Positions 1-8,991 of a DNA stretch of 21,990 nt are shown in pieces; the stretch's first letter is position 1, and every line of letters starts with the position of its first letter. This stretch comes from a virus, in IMG/VR virus record IMGVR_UViG_3300021964_000623, positions 1 to 21,990 of that record; one strand, written 5' to 3'. A program made the translations under genes and the position numbers. Below the pieces are notes generated by a model. That model was not told the DNA's origin and made no database searches. It worked only from the letters and a program-made list of their open reading frames with translations.

Positions 1-1626
1 ACGGGTGGCTTCACTACTATGGAAGCTGCCATGAAGTCTGCCAGAGAAGAATCTGGTCGTATGGCTGATGAGATTGAGCGACTTAATCTTGGCCTTCGGA
101 GTAATACTGAACTTAATCTCACCCGAGCCATCGCAGAGCAAACTAAGCGTGTAGCTGATGCGCAGGCCCTTGCAGAACAAGTTGCTGGCACGGATGGTGG
201 TTTTGTTGCGGAACAACGGCTGGCTCGTGAACAAGAAACTCTCCGTGAATACCAGCAGCAACTGCAAACCCTTAAAGATCAAGCTCAAGAGATTGACGAC
301 ATAAAAGAGGCACGAGAGCAAGAAGTTGAGAATGCACGAGAGCAGATTGAACTTCAGGAACAATATCGGGAAAGCCTACGTCGAACTCAAAGGCAACAGC
401 TAGAAGCTCTTCTGGAAGCTGGCCGAATTGCAGAAGAAGGTCGTCAGACACGAGAAGACATAGCCCGCAGTCTTGAGCGAGAGGCTGAACTCTACCGTGA
501 GATTGCTCGGTTTGGAGAAGATAGTGAGCAAGTAGAGGCTCTTCGCGCACAACAAGCTCGTGATGCACACCTAGCTCGTATCCAAGAGACTACGACAAAT
601 GAAGTGCTTATCCGTCAGGCAATGGAACGCTATGATGCGATGGTGCAAACTCGGGAAGAGGCTGACCGGGTTACCTCCGCCCTAAAACAAGTTGAGTCTG
701 CAAACTTAAGTTCTTTCAATGACCAAGTTCGTATGCTTGCAACCCTATTGGGAACAAGTGCTGACGAGGCTGCAAGGTTGTTGTCTAACATGCCCGTAGG
801 CATGACTTTTGGTAACACAGGTGCATTGTCGGGTTACAGTGGGGAAGAACTATTGCCTCCTGCCCGTAGACAACCTCGTGGTGCTGGCGGTCCAAACGCA
901 GTAGAGCGTCTACAGCAAGAGATTGCCTTCCGTCAGCGCACCCTTAATCTGTCGAAGGAAGAAAAGGCTCTACAGACCGAGATCTTCCGTATTACTAACG
1001 CTCTTGGTAAAGACCGCAACAAATACTCTTCCGACTTCATCGCTAACCTTGCACAACAGAACCTTGCGCTACAAGAGCAAGAGCGTATAATTGAAGAAGC
1101 CCGTCAAAGGCACGAGCAAATGGCTGATGTCATTGAAAATGGCATTGGGGATGCACTCATGTCTATGGTCGATGGCACCAAGTCTGTTAAGGATGCCTTC
1201 AAGGATATGGCACGACAAGTCATTGCTGAGTTGTATCGTATTATTGTCGTCCAGCAGATTGCTAATTCTCTTGCGGGGGCTATTATGGGCGGCTTTGGTG
1301 GTCCTACTCGGCCTGTAATGAACCCAAGACGAGCATCCGGCGGTTCTATGATGTCTGGTCGCCCCTACCTTGTCGGTGAACACGGTCCTGAGCTTGTCAT
1401 CCCCGGTCGTAGTGGGACAGTAATGAACGCTGACCTTACCCGTAAGTCTATGGGTGGATCTGATGCTGTTAATGTCGTCAATAACATCAATGTGACTGGT
1501 GGGACTGACCCTGCTGCTATCCGTATGGAAGTAGCTAAACTCATGCCCCAGATCACTAACGCAACTAAAACTGCTGTCATTGATGCTCGTCGTCGTGGTG
1601 GTCAAATGAGGGCTGCATTCCAATGA
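1..1626 (+). CDS. Tail tape measure protein, C-terminal part (5' end outside window)
   Basis: The reading frame is open from the first base, so the ATG at 19 is probably internal and the true start lies upstream. At least 541 codons are visible. The first 380 or so are highly charged, rich in Glu, Gln, Arg and Ala, and look like long coiled coil. Next come a short domain with GIGDALMSMVDGTKSVKDAF (about codons 379-398), a hydrophobic stretch (about 415-436), and the motif GRPYLVGEHGPELVIPG (about 453-470). That last motif, with a preceding Gly/Ser-rich linker, is typical of the C-termini of siphovirus tape measure proteins. The protein sets tail length and is ejected with DNA. Its place immediately before the distal-tail genes fits. 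It ends in an ATGA overlap with the next gene. Confidence 0.9.
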   Translation, partial: TGGFTTMEAAMKSAREESGRMADEIERLNLGLRSNTELNLTRAIAEQTKRVADAQALAEQVAGTDGGFVAEQRLAREQETLREYQQQLQTLKDQAQEIDDIKEAREQEVENAREQIELQEQYRESLRRTQRQQLEALLEAGRIAEEGRQTREDIARSLEREAELYREIARFGEDSEQVEALRAQQARDAHLARIQETTTNEVLIRQAMERYDAMVQTREEADRVTSALKQVESANLSSFNDQVRMLATLLGTSADEAARLLSNMPVGMTFGNTGALSGYSGEELLPPARRQPRGAGGPNAVERLQQEIAFRQRTLNLSKEEKALQTEIFRITNALGKDRNKYSSDFIANLAQQNLALQEQERIIEEARQRHEQMADVIENGIGDALMSMVDGTKSVKDAFKDMARQVIAELYRIIVVQQIANSLAGAIMGGFGGPTRPVMNPRRASGGSMMSGRPYLVGEHGPELVIPGRSGTVMNADLTRKSMGGSDAVNVVNNINVTGGTDPAAIRMEVAKLMPQITNATKTAVIDARRRGGQMRAAFQ

Positions 1627-2207
1627 GTATATCTTATCCCCTAGCACTCCCGACATCTATTGGGATAGCTGAAATTACTCTGTCGGCTAATAATGCTGTG
1701 GCTACAAGTCAGTCACCCTTTACGTTCCAACAGCAGATCATCCAGCATCCGGGTCAAAGGTGGACAGCTTCTGTTACTATCCCCCCTGTTCGTCGTGACC
1801 TAGCTGAGCCTTGGATAGCCTTCCTGCTGTCTCTGAATGGCCCTGTAGGCACCTTCCTCTTGGGAGACCCTAACGCTAAGGCTCCCCAAGGAACTGCCAC
1901 CTCAGCGACGATCTCAGGGGCTGCTGGAAGTGCTAGTCCTACTATTACCATGACTGGGACACTCTTGGCTGGTGACTACATCCAGATTGGCTCAGGTGCT
2001 ACAGCTACCCTGCATAAGGTCTTGGTCGATAGAAGTGGGACTGGGACGCTAGAGATCTGGCCTGCACTAAGGTCTACTGCATCCAGTGCGACAGTAACCC
2101 TGACAAACACTGTTGGTCGTTTCCGACTGTCAGGAACTCAGCAATCCTTTGGTATTAACAACGCTAGTGTCTATGGCATTAGCTTCGATTGTGTGGAAGC
2201 CCTATGA
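1623..2207 (+). CDS. Distal tail / minor tail protein (Dit-like position)
   Basis: A 194-aa structural protein whose ATG overlaps the tape measure stop (ATGA). The N-terminal half has the pattern PFTFQQQIIQHPGQRW, then PPVRRDLAEPWIAFLLSLNG, then TFLLGDP. This pattern is familiar from minor tail proteins of marine siphophages encoded right after the tape measure gene. The second half is Thr/Ser/Gly-rich beta-strand-like sequence, and the C-terminus (about residues 165-194) returns to a hydrophobic strand pattern. It occupies the slot of the GTA gp12 / distal tail protein that joins the tail tube to the hub. There are no catalytic motifs. The function is inferred from position and general resemblance, not from a firm family match. 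Confidence 0.65.
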   Translation: MSISYPLALPTSIGIAEITLSANNAVATSQSPFTFQQQIIQHPGQRWTASVTIPPVRRDLAEPWIAFLLSLNGPVGTFLLGDPNAKAPQGTATSATISGAAGSASPTITMTGTLLAGDYIQIGSGATATLHKVLVDRSGTGTLEIWPALRSTASSATVTLTNTVGRFRLSGTQQSFGINNASVYGISFDCVEAL

Positions 2208-2758
2208 GTAGAGATATCACCCCGACAGTATCTAATGCTTTAGATGATGCAGTAGTATCACCCTTCTTCGCTGTAGACTTAGACTTCGATAGTGGCTCCC
2301 TATACGTCTGGTCAGGCTATGGGGATCTTGTCATTGGCTCTAAGACTTATCTTGGTGCTGGACAACTCCTGAATATTTCCTCCGTCACTGAGACCACTGA
2401 GATGGACGCTAAGGGCGCTACTCTGTCTATGAGTGGTATCCCCTCCAGTTTCCTCTCAGTGGCCCTACAGGAGCCTTATCAGGGGCGTGAGTGTCGTATC
2501 TACTTTGGTATGACCAGTAACCCCTCAGCTTATGTAGAAGTGTTCTCTGGTGAACTTGACCAGATGAATATAGAAGAAAGTGCTGAGACTGCTGTTGTGT
2601 CAGTTACTGCTGAGAATGTGTTAGTTAAACTTGAGCGACCAGTTGTGAGACGCTTCAGTGACCAAGATCAGAAGTCTCGTTTCCCTAATGACAAGGGGTT
2701 AGAGTTTGTTGCCTCTCTTCAAGATAAAGACATTCTGTGGGGCAGAGTAGCATCGTGA
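2204..2758 (+). CDS. Tail protein resembling the DUF2163 N-terminal region (hub-associated)
   Basis: The start is placed at the ATG overlapping the preceding stop (ATGA at 2204-2207), not at the in-frame GTG/TTG candidates further upstream. That gives 184 aa. Visible features are SPFFAVDLDFDSGSLYVWSGYGDL near the N-terminus (shown here in two joined strands), TYLGAGQLLNISSVTET, a segment with MSGIPSSFLSVAL, and a C-terminal RRFSDQDQKSRFPNDKGLEF followed by WGR. This matches the style of DUF2163 tail proteins (GTA gp13 / baseplate hub). It is shorter than the roughly 290-aa GTA protein and seems to lack its C-terminal domain. Neighbours on both sides are tail genes. The stop overlaps the next start as GTGA. 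Confidence 0.65.
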   Translation: MSRDITPTVSNALDDAVVSPFFAVDLDFDSGSLYVWSGYGDLVIGSKTYLGAGQLLNISSVTETTEMDAKGATLSMSGIPSSFLSVALQEPYQGRECRIYFGMTSNPSAYVEVFSGELDQMNIEESAETAVVSVTAENVLVKLERPVVRRFSDQDQKSRFPNDKGLEFVASLQDKDILWGRVAS

Positions 2759-3204
2759 TTACTTATCAACAAGAGTCCTTGGTTACGACCAAAGAGGATG
2801 CCCGACCTCTGTTGGAAAAGCACTGGCAAGAGATTGCCCTAAACAAAGACACTATCAAACTGAACCCTGACTGGGATGCCTATGCTGACTTAGAAGATGC
2901 TGGAATACTTAAGATCTTTACGGCCAGATCTAATGGTATACTCATAGGCTACTTTGTCGTATTCGTTAAGGCGCATATCCACTACAAGGATCATCTGTTT
3001 GCCTACAACGACATCCTGTTCTTAGATAAAGAATATCGTAAAGGTTACACAGGTTCCAAGCTGATTAAGTTCGCTGAGAAGTGCCTTAAGGAAGATGGTG
3101 TGTCTGTTTGTGTCGTTAATACTAAGAGGCATAAGCCTTTTGATGTCTTGCTGAAGTGGCTGGGCTACAAGCATATTGAAAATATTTACTCGAAGGTGTT
3201 GTAA
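2755..3204 (+). CDS. GNAT-family N-acetyltransferase in the tail gene cluster
   Basis: About 149 aa from the GTG at 2755, which overlaps the preceding stop (GTGA) as other junctions here do. An in-frame GTG at 2737 is the alternative and neither has a strong ribosome binding site. The fold order looks like a GNAT: strands around residues 50-75, then YNDILFLDKEYRKGYTGSKL, where R95-KGYT-G100 is the acetyl-CoA pyrophosphate-binding loop in the form seen in phage GNATs. The helix KFAEKCLKEDG and the strand VSVCVVNTK follow, and the C-terminus has LLKWLGYKHIENIYSKVL. GNATs move an acetyl group from acetyl-CoA to an amine. The target here is unknown. The gene lies between two structural genes where lambda K-like or NlpC/P60 peptidases usually lie, so a role in tail assembly or in modifying a host protein is possible. 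Confidence 0.8.
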   Translation: MITYQQESLVTTKEDARPLLEKHWQEIALNKDTIKLNPDWDAYADLEDAGILKIFTARSNGILIGYFVVFVKAHIHYKDHLFAYNDILFLDKEYRKGYTGSKLIKFAEKCLKEDGVSVCVVNTKRHKPFDVLLKWLGYKHIENIYSKVL

Positions 3205-6056
3205 TGGCAGTATCAGCAGTAATGGCAGCTATTTCCACTGCGACAACTGTTGCATTTGGTGGCACACTCTTCTTTGGCAGTATCTTGGGCCACTTTTTGG
3301 TCACTACAGCTATGGGTGCTGCCCTTAATGCACTTACACCTAAGCCCAGCTTTAGTGCTGGTCAACAAGGCTACAGCCTCCGTGGAGAATCTGGTGCAGC
3401 ACTAGATCATCAGGTTATCTATGGTGAGGCTCGTGTGGGTGGCGCTCGTGTCTATGACTCAGCTACAGGTGACACCAATCAGTATCTCCATCGTGTCCTT
3501 GCATTTGCTGGGCATGAAGTAGACAGCTATCAAGAGATCTACCTAAATGATGAGGTCGTTACTGTTGATCCCATTACATTCCTTGTCACTGCCCCTGAGC
3601 AATACGCTAGTAAGGTCCGTATTAAGCAGTATATTGGGACTACGGCTCAAGCTGCCGACCCAGATTTAATATCTGATACTGAGGCTCAATTAGCTTCTGA
3701 TCCCACGTTTGAGGGTGTGTGGACTACTAATCACAAGCTGTCAGGTATTGCCTATCTGTATGTTCGCTTTGAATACGATGCTAACGCATTCCCCAATGGT
3801 GTGCCTTCTGTCTCAGCTAAGATCCGTGGTAAGAAGGTCTTTAATCCTGTTACTAGCACTACAGCTTGGAGCGACAACCCTGCACTATGTACCAGGGACT
3901 ACCTGACAAGTGACTATGGCCTCAATCAGCCTGCTGATCGTATTGATGACACCCTTGTTAGTGTAGCCGTTGGTGTCTGTAATCAGACGACAGAGGGTGA
4001 GAGCCGTTATACCTGTAATGGTGCTTTTAGGACTGGGGCTGCACCGTCTGACATCCTGACTAACCTCCTTACCTCTATGGGGGGTCTGTTGTGGTATGGT
4101 CAGGGTAAGTGGCGTATGAAGGCTGCTGCTTGGACCACTCCTACTGTGTCGTTTGATGAAGACGATCTTCGGTCAGCTATTTCTCTCTCCACTCGTCACT
4201 CTCGTCGTGACAACTTTAATTCTGTCAAGGGGGTCTTTGCTGGGGATGAGACAGATTGGCAACCGACAGACTACCCAGAGGTCACTGACCCTGCCTTCTT
4301 AATTGCTGACAATAATGTCCCTAACGTTCTGGACTTCCCACTGCCGTTTACTTCCTCTGATAAAACTGCACAAAGGGTAGCCCGTATTGCTCTTAATCGT
4401 AACAGGGAACAACTTACGTTCTCTGCTGCATTTGGTATGAGGGCTTTCCAAGTTCAAGTGGGCGACTTTGTTTACATCAACAACACCCGCTTTGGCTGGA
4501 CTAATAAGGCATTTGAGGTTGTCGAGTGGACCTTTGGTCTGACTGACGATCTGGACATCCAAGTAAACATGACCCTTCGTGAGATCAGCGAGGGCGTCTT
4601 TACGGGTGCAGATGGGGCGACATTTGAACAGAACAACACTACGTTTCCCAATCCGTCTGGTGGCTTGACCATCGCCAACCTCACAGCTTCAGGTGGTGGA
4701 ACTACTCAGGGTGACGGGACGTTCATTAACAGTGTCATCTTGGACTGGGATAATGTAAGTAATGCTTTCCTTGACTATTACGAAGTTGAATGGAAAGTCA
4801 CAACAGACAGTATCTACAGTGCTACGACAACAGAACAAAGTGGTATTGAGATTGTCCCTGTTGTAGATGGCCTTCTCTATGAATTTAGAGTTAGGGCTGT
4901 TACTGTCGCTGGCATCAAGGGGCCGTATGCTACTGTTCAGTTTACTGGTGGTGGGGATCAGACTGCACCCGGTCTGCCCACTAGCATTACAGCAACTGGC
5001 GGCTTTCAGTATATTACTATTAGTTGGACTAACCCTACAGATGCTGACCTGAATTATGTAGAAATCTGGGAAGCTGACACTAATAACTCAGGTGCAGCAA
5101 CTAAGATTGGTATTAGTGGTGGTAACAACTTCCAAAGGACTGGTTTGGGGCTAGAAGTAACCAAGTTCTACTTCCTCAAGTCGGTTGACTATAGTGGCAA
5201 CGCTTCGGCCTTCACGGCTGGTGTTAACGCGACGACCACTTTCATTGATGATGAAGACTTCGCCAACGGCATCTACAGCTTGTTCACCGACCAAGGGCTG
5301 TATGCGATTGAGGATGTGACCAGCCTGCCTGTCGCTGGAGACTTCGTAGGGCAGAAGGTCTTTAACCGCACAGATGGAAAGCTGTATTCTTGGACGGGAT
5401 CAGCGTGGGAAGCAACTGTTGCGGATGTTGCTCCCGGTTCCATCACCGCGACAGAAATTGCAGATAACGCAATCAGCACACCCAAGCTGCAAGCTAACGC
5501 TGTGGTTGCGAGTAAAATTGCAGGTAGCACTATCACAGGTGACAAGATTGTTGCCAACACGATCACAGGCGGTTTGCTGGCAACTAGCGGGATCATCACA
5601 AACTCGGCGCAGATAAATGATGCGGTTATTGTTAACGCTAAGATACAGAACGCTGCGGTTGATACGCTAAAAGTTGCTGGTCAGAGTATCACAGTAACTA
5701 GACTTGCTGGGCCTATAAGTGGCAATAACAACACTGGCGGTTCGTTACTTCTTAGTCTTAGTTGGACACCAACTCATACGGGGTCCGTATTTGTTGCCGC
5801 TGGTGGCTCTTTTGTTGATTTAAGTGACAACAATCCGGGACTTTATTTTGGGTACACATATGGCGGCGTTTCTTATCCTTTTTCAACTAACATAGCCAGT
5901 TACAACGCGACAGCATCTCTCACCAGATTTGATCCCGGATATATTTTTGAAACAACTGCTGGTGTTAGCGTAGGTATTCATCTTTACCGAACTGGTAGTG
6001 GTGGGACATTGGGGTATGAAAACGTCTATATCGCAGCATTTGAAAGGTTCCGCTAA
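3204..6056 (+). CDS. J-like tail hub / host-specificity protein with FN3 domains
   Basis: A 950-aa protein starting in a TAATG overlap with the acetyltransferase gene. Residues 1-45 are hydrophobic and Ala/Gly-rich, as in many phage hub proteins. Residues from about 55 to 470 form the hub-like region, including GEARVGGARVYDSATGD and later DEDDLRSAISLSTRHSRRDNF. Two fibronectin type III-like domains follow (about 485-580 and 582-680; motifs YYEVEWKVTT, LLYEFRVRAVT, ITISWTNPTDADLNYVEI). A region with GQKVFNRTDGKLYSWTGSAW follows (about 713-733). Next comes a repetitive stretch with ITATEIADNAISTPKLQANA (about 747-838), which is probably coiled or shaft-like. The last 110 residues are a separate beta-rich domain and the likely receptor-binding tip. 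It is the probable adsorption determinant. Confidence 0.85.
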   Translation: MAVSAVMAAISTATTVAFGGTLFFGSILGHFLVTTAMGAALNALTPKPSFSAGQQGYSLRGESGAALDHQVIYGEARVGGARVYDSATGDTNQYLHRVLAFAGHEVDSYQEIYLNDEVVTVDPITFLVTAPEQYASKVRIKQYIGTTAQAADPDLISDTEAQLASDPTFEGVWTTNHKLSGIAYLYVRFEYDANAFPNGVPSVSAKIRGKKVFNPVTSTTAWSDNPALCTRDYLTSDYGLNQPADRIDDTLVSVAVGVCNQTTEGESRYTCNGAFRTGAAPSDILTNLLTSMGGLLWYGQGKWRMKAAAWTTPTVSFDEDDLRSAISLSTRHSRRDNFNSVKGVFAGDETDWQPTDYPEVTDPAFLIADNNVPNVLDFPLPFTSSDKTAQRVARIALNRNREQLTFSAAFGMRAFQVQVGDFVYINNTRFGWTNKAFEVVEWTFGLTDDLDIQVNMTLREISEGVFTGADGATFEQNNTTFPNPSGGLTIANLTASGGGTTQGDGTFINSVILDWDNVSNAFLDYYEVEWKVTTDSIYSATTTEQSGIEIVPVVDGLLYEFRVRAVTVAGIKGPYATVQFTGGGDQTAPGLPTSITATGGFQYITISWTNPTDADLNYVEIWEADTNNSGAATKIGISGGNNFQRTGLGLEVTKFYFLKSVDYSGNASAFTAGVNATTTFIDDEDFANGIYSLFTDQGLYAIEDVTSLPVAGDFVGQKVFNRTDGKLYSWTGSAWEATVADVAPGSITATEIADNAISTPKLQANAVVASKIAGSTITGDKIVANTITGGLLATSGIITNSAQINDAVIVNAKIQNAAVDTLKVAGQSITVTRLAGPISGNNNTGGSLLLSLSWTPTHTGSVFVAAGGSFVDLSDNNPGLYFGYTYGGVSYPFSTNIASYNATASLTRFDPGYIFETTAGVSVGIHLYRTGSGGTLGYENVYIAAFERFR

Positions 6057-6469
6057 TGATGCGTGTTACATATTATCACAACAGGGATGGCAGAATTGTT
6101 TCTCGCGCAACACTTCTCAATGAACAAGAAGTAGAGCAAAATAAACCAGAGGGTTGCTCTTATGTGTTGGGGGACTACGAGCAAGAGGATGTGTGGTTCC
6201 CCGATGGGCAAATGCAAACTATCCCGCCTAAGCCTGACAGTTTTTACAACTTTGACTACACAACTGGGCAATGGGTTGCTGACAATACCGCAGCTATGCA
6301 AGCCCTTCGCAGAGAACGTAATCGTCGTCTCGCTGCCTGCGACTGGACCCAAGTTCCTGACGCGCCCGTAGATCAAGCCGCATGGGCTGTGTACAGGCAA
6401 CAGCTACGAGACCTGCCCGAAAACACACAAGACCCGAGAAGCCCAGTATGGCCCACACCACCCGCATGA
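6056..6469 (+). CDS. Phage tail assembly chaperone (PF16778-like)
   Basis: A 137-aa protein whose start overlaps the hub gene stop (TAATGATG; two adjacent ATG codons, at 6056 and 6059, either usable). The N-terminal half carries YVLGDYEQEDVWFPDGQMQT and FYNFDYTTGQWVADNTAAM. The C-terminal half has RRERNRRLAACDWTQVPDAP, followed by AWAVYRQQLRDLPE and a PVWPTPPA end. That C-terminal signature is characteristic of the small tail assembly chaperone / tail fibre assembly proteins encoded directly after fibre or hub genes. The protein probably assists folding or attachment of the 950-aa hub protein and may not be part of the finished virion. The next gene starts in an ATGA overlap. Confidence 0.8.
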   Translation: MMRVTYYHNRDGRIVSRATLLNEQEVEQNKPEGCSYVLGDYEQEDVWFPDGQMQTIPPKPDSFYNFDYTTGQWVADNTAAMQALRRERNRRLAACDWTQVPDAPVDQAAWAVYRQQLRDLPENTQDPRSPVWPTPPA

Positions 6470-8478: not shown

Positions 8479-8991
8479 TTAAAACTCATCTGTTGTTCGA
8501 GGAAGATTGTTAGGTGTCATCTTAGGAAGTGGCCTTTTATTTTTACTGTAGGTAATAGGCCAAGTGCAACCTAAGAAGCGATCCTTAGAGATACGGACAA
8601 CATTGACACTGTTCCCCTGATTTCCACCTAGCACATAGTAGTCGGTAGCATCCTCACCAACGACAAACCCTACATGACCGCCCTTCCCACGAGCAAACAC
8701 GATGACAGCCCCGTAGCAAGGTTCTGTAGGCTTGCCAAACTTAAGCCAGTTCCTAGCCCAGTAAGGGTTCTTACCTACAGCCCCAGTAAAGGGTTCATCA
8801 GGTAGGCTGTTCTTGATTGCTGTCTCAGTATAGTCACCACACCAAGGAAGTGCTTTAGGATCGCCCAAGGCTTTACCATCACTACGGAGCCAAGCCTTAA
8901 GTTTAGCATTGTCGTTGATCTCATGCAGACCAAAGACCTTCTTCCCCTCTACAATCCAAGGAAGTTCTTTCCTGAATAAGTTACCGAACAT
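8479..8991 (-). CDS. Endolysin-like peptidase/amidase, TIGR02594 type
   Basis: A 170-aa protein with a Cys/His hydrolase layout of the NlpC/P60-CHAP superfamily. LPWCGDYTETAI holds the probable nucleophile Cys51, GKGGHVGFVVGE holds His106, and VLGGNQGNSVNVV lies at about residues 120-132. The segment GKNPYWARNWLKFG between them is typical of the TIGR02594 group. There is no signal peptide or membrane span, so it would need the holin to reach peptidoglycan. It lies on the - strand in the early-type block, away from the holin and spanins on the + strand. An AGGG lies about eight bases before the ATG at 8991. An alternative is a tail-associated cell-wall hydrolase. Confidence 0.8.
   Translation of the reverse strand: MFGNLFRKELPWIVEGKKVFGLHEINDNAKLKAWLRSDGKALGDPKALPWCGDYTETAIKNSLPDEPFTGAVGKNPYWARNWLKFGKPTEPCYGAVIVFARGKGGHVGFVVGEDATDYYVLGGNQGNSVNVVRISKDRFLGCTWPITYSKNKRPLPKMTPNNLPRTTDEF

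What the first reader, a model, noticed from the sequence alone, without database searches (positions are those of the whole stretch)
2755..3204. Acetyltransferase encoded inside the tail tip gene cluster
A GNAT enzyme takes the slot between the DUF2163-like gene and the hub gene, where GTA-like and lambda-like clusters carry a NlpC/P60 peptidase. It is translationally coupled to both tail genes, so it is expressed with structural proteins. It may acetylate a tail protein during assembly, be a virion component, or act on the host.
Basis: partly seen in the sequence, partly recalled or inferred. Interest (0 to 1): 0.55.

Follow-up and report, generated by a model that had tools for sequence, protein, structure and literature searches.

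The report
Acetyltransferase-fold protein in tail-tip operon
A group of uncultured long-tailed phages carries an acetyltransferase-like gene between two tail-tip genes, in a place where related phages carry a different small protein, which suggests that it helps to build or chemically finish the tip of the tail.

Summary
Window 2755-3204 (+) encodes a 149-aa GNAT-fold protein (AlphaFold pLDDT 92.9) between a hub gene and a J-like gene, overlapping both. The place is conserved and selected: J follows the GNAT in 80 of 80 fetched viral contigs, the hub precedes it in 74 (6 start at a contig edge), and dN/dS is 0.04-0.06 (5 of 12 pairs measurable). Of 42 loci fetched with the hub protein, 27 have the GNAT in the slot, 14 another protein (DUF6950 in the 4 tested), and 1 is cut off. 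None of 23 long contigs tested carries both. In two SAR11 phages and 80 related contigs the slot protein is HlyC-like (RTX-toxin acyltransferase family). GNAT homologues in podophages lie in the T7-gp13 position, before putative ejection-protein genes. Best reading: a tail-tip assembly factor acting on J, probably by acetylation; a non-catalytic chaperone is a serious rival, because the acetyl-CoA loop lacks its central glycine in 48 of 48 relatives. Host-directed and virion roles fit less well but are not excluded. An apparent N-terminal motif shared by downstream proteins proved mostly generic in a control. Substrate and activity are untested.

The parts
2755..3204 (+). GNAT-fold protein, 149 aa (GTG start; the longer ORF opens at 2737)
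   Evidence: conserved start and place
1..1626 (+). tape measure protein, C-terminal part (cut by window edge)
   Evidence: phrog_10574 4.6e-12 and others
1623..2207 (+). distal tail protein (Dit)
   Evidence: phrog_1302 2.9e-30
2189..2758 (+). hub protein of the phiJL001 Gp84 / DUF2163 type (longest ORF; true start may be the ATG at 2204)
   Evidence: phrog_2048 1.5e-43; PF09931 6.3e-4, below cut-off
3204..6056 (+). J-like central tail protein with an uncharged hydrophobic N-terminus; candidate partner or substrate
   Evidence: phrog_5616 2.2e-86, phrog_31 1.7e-77; N-terminus
6056..6469 (+). tail/fibre assembly chaperone-like protein
   Evidence: PF16778 2.3e-18

Best explanation
The gene encodes a tail-tip assembly factor built on the GNAT fold and made, apparently by translational coupling, just before J. 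It takes the place that other siphophages give to DUF6950. It most likely acts transiently on newly made J (perhaps also the hub), transferring an acetyl group to the J N-terminus or to a J lysine, so that J with its hydrophobic N-terminus folds or assembles correctly. Shown: gene, fold, fixed place, purifying selection, no co-occurrence with DUF6950 in the contigs tested. Inferred: J as target, acetyl transfer, transient rather than virion role.
For: Fixed place directly before J in 80 of 80 contigs. Purifying selection. GNAT fold at high confidence, with N-alpha- and protein acetyltransferases among the matches (RimI, NatC, Ard1, HP0935); a profile of 48 relatives finds N-alpha-acetyltransferase 30 at 2.1e-4, second after an uncharacterised acetyltransferase. 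E26, G65, Y66 and R95 identical in 22 of 22 diverse rows; D86 in 48 of 48 siphophage rows, 16 of 22 diverse rows. Replacement by DUF6950, without co-occurrence. A second acyltransferase-family protein, HlyC-like, in the same place in SAR11 phages. Podophage homologues also in a structural operon, before putative ejection-protein genes. J N-terminus uncharged over residues 2-30 in 95 of 100 GNAT loci.
Against: Position 4 of the acetyl-CoA loop (recalled consensus Q/R-x-x-G-x-G/A) is never Gly in 48 siphophage relatives and is Gly in 3 of 22 diverse rows. No substrate evidence. In 5 of 100 GNAT loci J does not have Ala at residue 2 (2 Gly, 1 Gln, 1 Phe, 1 Val), against a strict N-terminal-Ala substrate. 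The likeness of podophage downstream N-termini to J is mostly generic. The HlyC-like slot proteins seem to lack the N-terminal catalytic His of HlyC (that His is recalled). J differences between slot types may be plain ancestry.
Confidence: 0.4

Rival explanations
1. Non-catalytic assembly chaperone: the GNAT fold is kept as a binder of the J N-terminus or the hub, without acetyl transfer, and the unrelated slot families do one chaperoning job.
For: Atypical CoA loop in 48 of 48; replacement by DUF6950 or an HlyC-like protein in the same place; DUF6950 rows keep an Asp-Cys pair but show no invariant His, and HlyC-like slot proteins seem to lack the recalled catalytic His, so all three may be worn enzymes.
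Against: E26, Y66 and R95 identical in 22 of 22 diverse rows and D86 in 48 of 48 siphophage rows, more than a plain scaffold needs; SAR11 HlyC-like proteins still match PF02794 well above cut-off.
Confidence: 0.28
2. Host-directed enzyme: an acetyltransferase acting on host proteins late in infection that happens to be encoded in the tail operon.
For: Roseophage GNATs have been read this way (PMC6918029, passages read); GNATs act on many substrates.
Against: One match per contig in 19 of 19 long contigs and the same place before J in 80 of 80; a free cargo gene would be expected to move. The podophage homologues are also in structural operons.
Confidence: 0.15
3. Virion component: the protein is a minor part of the tail tip.
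For: Place among structural genes.
Against: Relatives replace it by an unrelated protein; the gp13 homologue of T7-like phage phiPsa17, in the position analogous to the podophage GNAT, is not listed in its virion proteome table (PMC4517105, passages read). Both are indirect.
Confidence: 0.12

Closest known systems
phrog_1249 phage acetyltransferases of Zobellviridae and other podophages (e.g. Vibrio phage 1.253.O; cobavirus GNAT)
   Same: Homologous GNAT (25-45% identity in 24 records), late structural operon
   Different: They sit in the T7-gp13 position, not between hub and J, in the 17 of 24 records whose context was read
DUF6950 (PF22262, phrog_2134) tail slot proteins
   Same: Same place between hub and J in CRP-406, CRP-811, CRP-6, CAjan, PY54 (with an extra ORF before it) and Loki
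   Different: Unrelated sequence; no GNAT match in the 4 DUF6950 contigs searched
HlyC / RTX toxin acyltransferase family (PF02794) in Pelagibacter phages HTVC112P and HTVC026P
   Same: Same place between hub and J; acyltransferase family
   Different: No sequence relation found to this GNAT
T7 gp13 (PF11090)
   Same: Position analogue of the podophage GNATs; morphogenesis role suggested in PMC6775973 (passages read)
   Different: No sequence relation to this GNAT
RcGTA / lambda tail NlpC/P60 protein (recalled)
   Same: Slot between hub gene and J/megatron (recalled)
   Different: NlpC/P60 not found in the window record or in 23 contigs

Membership tests
GNAT superfamily | GNAT fold | tested here: met
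   Model pLDDT 92.9; PDB matches
GNAT superfamily | Curated profile cut-off | tested here: inconclusive
   Window protein below Pfam cut-offs; five relatives above PF00583's; phrog_1249 4.6e-11
GNAT superfamily | Acetyl-CoA loop Q/R-x-x-G-x-G/A (recalled) | tested here: not met
   Position 1 R in 48 of 48; position 4 Gly in 0 of 48; position 6 Gly or Ala in 45 of 48. A motif departure; does not undo the fold
GNAT superfamily | Acetyl transfer | not testable with these tools
   Needs biochemistry
NlpC/P60 tail peptidase | PF00877 match in the record | tested here: not met
   Window record 0 matches; 0 of 23 contigs
T7 gp13 (PF11090) | Sequence relation to T7 gp13 | tested here: not met
   No PF11090 hit; hhalign probability 0.3%; T7 gp13 itself matches PF11090
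HlyC (PF02794) | Sequence relation to HlyC-like slot proteins | tested here: not met
   No PF02794 hit; hhalign probability 0.1%
Virion protein | Presence in purified particles | not testable with these tools
   Needs virion mass spectrometry

The most novel reading that the evidence does not exclude
The slot before J is a docking place for acyl-transfer enzymes that mature the tail tip: a GNAT acetylates J in one phage group, an HlyC-type enzyme acylates J in SAR11 siphophages, and the podophage GNAT does the same to the ejection protein encoded next to it. Phages would prime their membrane-penetrating protein by acylation, as a haemolysin is primed by the acyltransferase encoded beside it.
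Probability: 0.2. Interest if true: 0.8.

Novelty: new variant of a known kind. Interest (0 to 1): 0.5.

Why it matters
It points to a small exchangeable slot in the tail-tip operon whose occupants (GNAT, DUF6950, HlyC-like) have no tested function in any paper that my ten literature searches turned up (open-licence papers only). If the GNAT or HlyC-like protein acylates J, it would be, as far as I know, a new step in tail maturation, and some phage GNATs now read as host-metabolism genes (as in PMC6918029) would need a second look. If it is a chaperone, it is a candidate assembly partner of J.

Tried and rejected
N-terminal motif convergence. The gene after the GNAT in podophages starts much like the window J (both the window J and the Vibrio phage 1.253.O protein begin MAVSAVMA). 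In 17 podophage-type loci the downstream gene ranked first by a GNAT-slot J N-terminus profile in 13 of 17 (Fisher p 8.9e-7), but a DUF6950-slot J profile did so in 11 of 17 (p 2.1e-6) and an HlyC-slot J profile in 2 of 17 (p 0.04). I treat it as mostly a generic Ala-rich hydrophobic start. Zobellvirus VPMCC5, whose 97-aa slot protein has no acetyltransferase PHROG hit, has a downstream protein with a different start, MGIETV: one case only.

T7 gp13 homology: none by sequence. DUF6950 as NlpC/P60: its model was poor (pLDDT 53), PDB sequence searches gave nothing useful and Pfam NLPC_P60 reached only E=0.1 in CAjan, so it is not claimed to be a peptidase. Search of bacterial genomes with the GNAT alignment: 51 candidates, no relative confirmed. 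Near-identical phages: no megablast match. Viral scans with one podophage GNAT and one downstream protein confirmed no relative. dN/dS: 12 pairs tried, 5 gave a value (0.050, 0.041, 0.040, 0.049, 0.061), 7 were saturated. Catalytic-residue expectations for GNAT, HlyC and NlpC/P60, and the GTA/lambda slot content, are recalled, not from a call.

Full report
What is there. Window 2755-3204 encodes a 149-residue protein in the order tape measure - Dit - hub - GNAT - J - assembly chaperone. Pfam GNAT models match only below their cut-offs, but five relatives pass PF00583's. A model from an alignment of 48 siphophage sequences has pLDDT 92.9. The PDB matches listed are nearly all named acetyltransferases: aminoglycoside acetyltransferases, RimI, NatC, Ard1, HP0935, Ta0374. 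The fold does not tell the substrate.

Conservation of the place. A scan of IMG/VR with the protein gave 143 relatives, of which the best 80 were kept. J follows the GNAT in 80 of 80; the hub precedes it in 74, and the other 6 start at a contig edge. GNAT stop and J ATG lie -1 to +4 bases apart in 80 of 80. Where synonymous sites were not saturated (5 of 12 pairs) dN/dS is 0.04-0.06. This is a selected part of the tail-tip operon.

What else fills the slot. A scan with the hub protein gave 42 loci: 27 with the GNAT before J, 14 with another gene there, 1 with J off the contig (some lie on contigs already fetched and were not removed). Of the 14, the slot proteins of L103, L111, L114 and L122 were tested and are DUF6950; the other ten resemble these by eye. 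Among named phages the slot holds DUF6950 in Roseobacter phages CRP-406, CRP-811 and CRP-6, Escherichia phage CAjan, Yersinia phage PY54 (with one extra ORF before it) and Acinetobacter phage Loki. In Pelagibacter phages HTVC112P and HTVC026P it holds an HlyC-family protein (PF02794, E=3e-16 and 7.1e-13). A scan with the HTVC112P protein found 129 relatives and kept 80: 78 have hub before and J after, and two are cut by contig ends. HlyC-family proteins also occur elsewhere: in an early region of HTVC103P and among unnamed genes in HTVC115P.

Exclusion test. In 19 long GNAT contigs there is one GNAT match each and no DUF6950 or NlpC/P60 match; in 4 DUF6950 contigs there is one DUF6950 and no GNAT. 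The contigs are not known to be complete, so absence is provisional.

Podophage relatives. tblastn found the GNAT in 24 phage records at 25-45% identity. I read the context of 17 (one, VPv81, has no annotation and was read from its ORFs). By annotation none lies between a hub and J. Twelve of the 17 are Zobellviridae, where the GNAT is followed by a small gene with a hydrophobic start and then a very large gene; the gene before it is a tubular protein B, a head-closure protein or unnamed. This is the T7 gp13 position. PMC6775973 (passages read) already suggested that the cobavirus GNAT corresponds to T7 gp13. I find no sequence relation to T7 gp13. The gp13 homologue of T7-like phage phiPsa17 is not listed in its virion proteome table (PMC4517105, passages read), which fits a non-virion role in that position.

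Catalysis. E26, G65, Y66 and R95 are identical in 22 of 22 diverse rows; D86 in 48 of 48 siphophage rows but 16 of 22 diverse rows. Against this, position 4 of the acetyl-CoA loop is not Gly in any of the 48. The other two slot families may also be incomplete as enzymes, by recalled criteria. I put acetyl transfer to J at 0.40 and a non-catalytic chaperone at 0.28.

Target. J is the natural candidate because its gene follows the GNAT in every contig examined. J starts differ with slot type: residue 2 is Ala in 95 of 100 GNAT loci, and residues 2-30 are uncharged in 95 of 100; Ala-Lys starts 31 of 49 DUF6950 loci, where 8 of 49 are uncharged over residues 2-30; Gly-Gly starts 80 of 80 HlyC loci, where none is. 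Redundant loci are counted; distinct 12-residue starts number 54, 24 and 22. This may be plain ancestry. The likeness to podophage downstream proteins is mostly generic.

Exchange in place. In L092-L097 and L101 the hub is 64-76% identical to the window's but the GNAT only 40-41%, while L009 has hub 65% and GNAT 93%. The GNAT seems to have been replaced by a distant relative without leaving the slot.

Literature. Ten searches of an open-licence library found no study of this slot. PMC6918029 (passages read) reads the GNATs of roseophages CRP-4 and CRP-5 as possible regulators of host metabolism; the fixed structural place argues against that for the window family, without excluding it.

Noticed in passing
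L126:6555-6941, L211:5986-6399, L130-L209: HlyC-family (RTX toxin acyltransferase) genes sit between hub and J in SAR11 siphophages; J there starts Met-Gly-Gly in 80 of 80 loci.
   Followed up: partly
L108:3344-3862: A second, different GNAT-like gene (PF00583 E=0.0039, below cut-off) lies between Dit and hub in a contig that also has the slot GNAT.
   Followed up: no
22 loci between Dit and hub, e.g. L012:2284-3006, L043:4256-6442, L068:3915-5966: Extra genes are inserted between Dit and hub; most begin with a protein starting M-x-D-K-K-I-S/T-x-L-T, of very variable length.
   Followed up: no
L277:2561-2854: Vibrio virus VPMCC5 has a 97-aa protein of unknown function where related Zobellviridae carry the GNAT.
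   Followed up: partly
window 8479-8991 (-): A 170-aa protein matches the C-terminal part of a baseplate hub/tail lysozyme family (phrog_1259, 1.3e-32), perhaps the endolysin.
   Followed up: no
L092-L097, L101: The slot GNAT is only 40-41% identical to the window's although the hub is 64-76% identical: exchange within the slot.
   Followed up: partly
L006 (PQ492659.1, Limnohabitans phage DC33): The record is labelled Inoviridae although it is 39 kb and carries a podophage-type GNAT neighbourhood; the label looks wrong.
   Followed up: no
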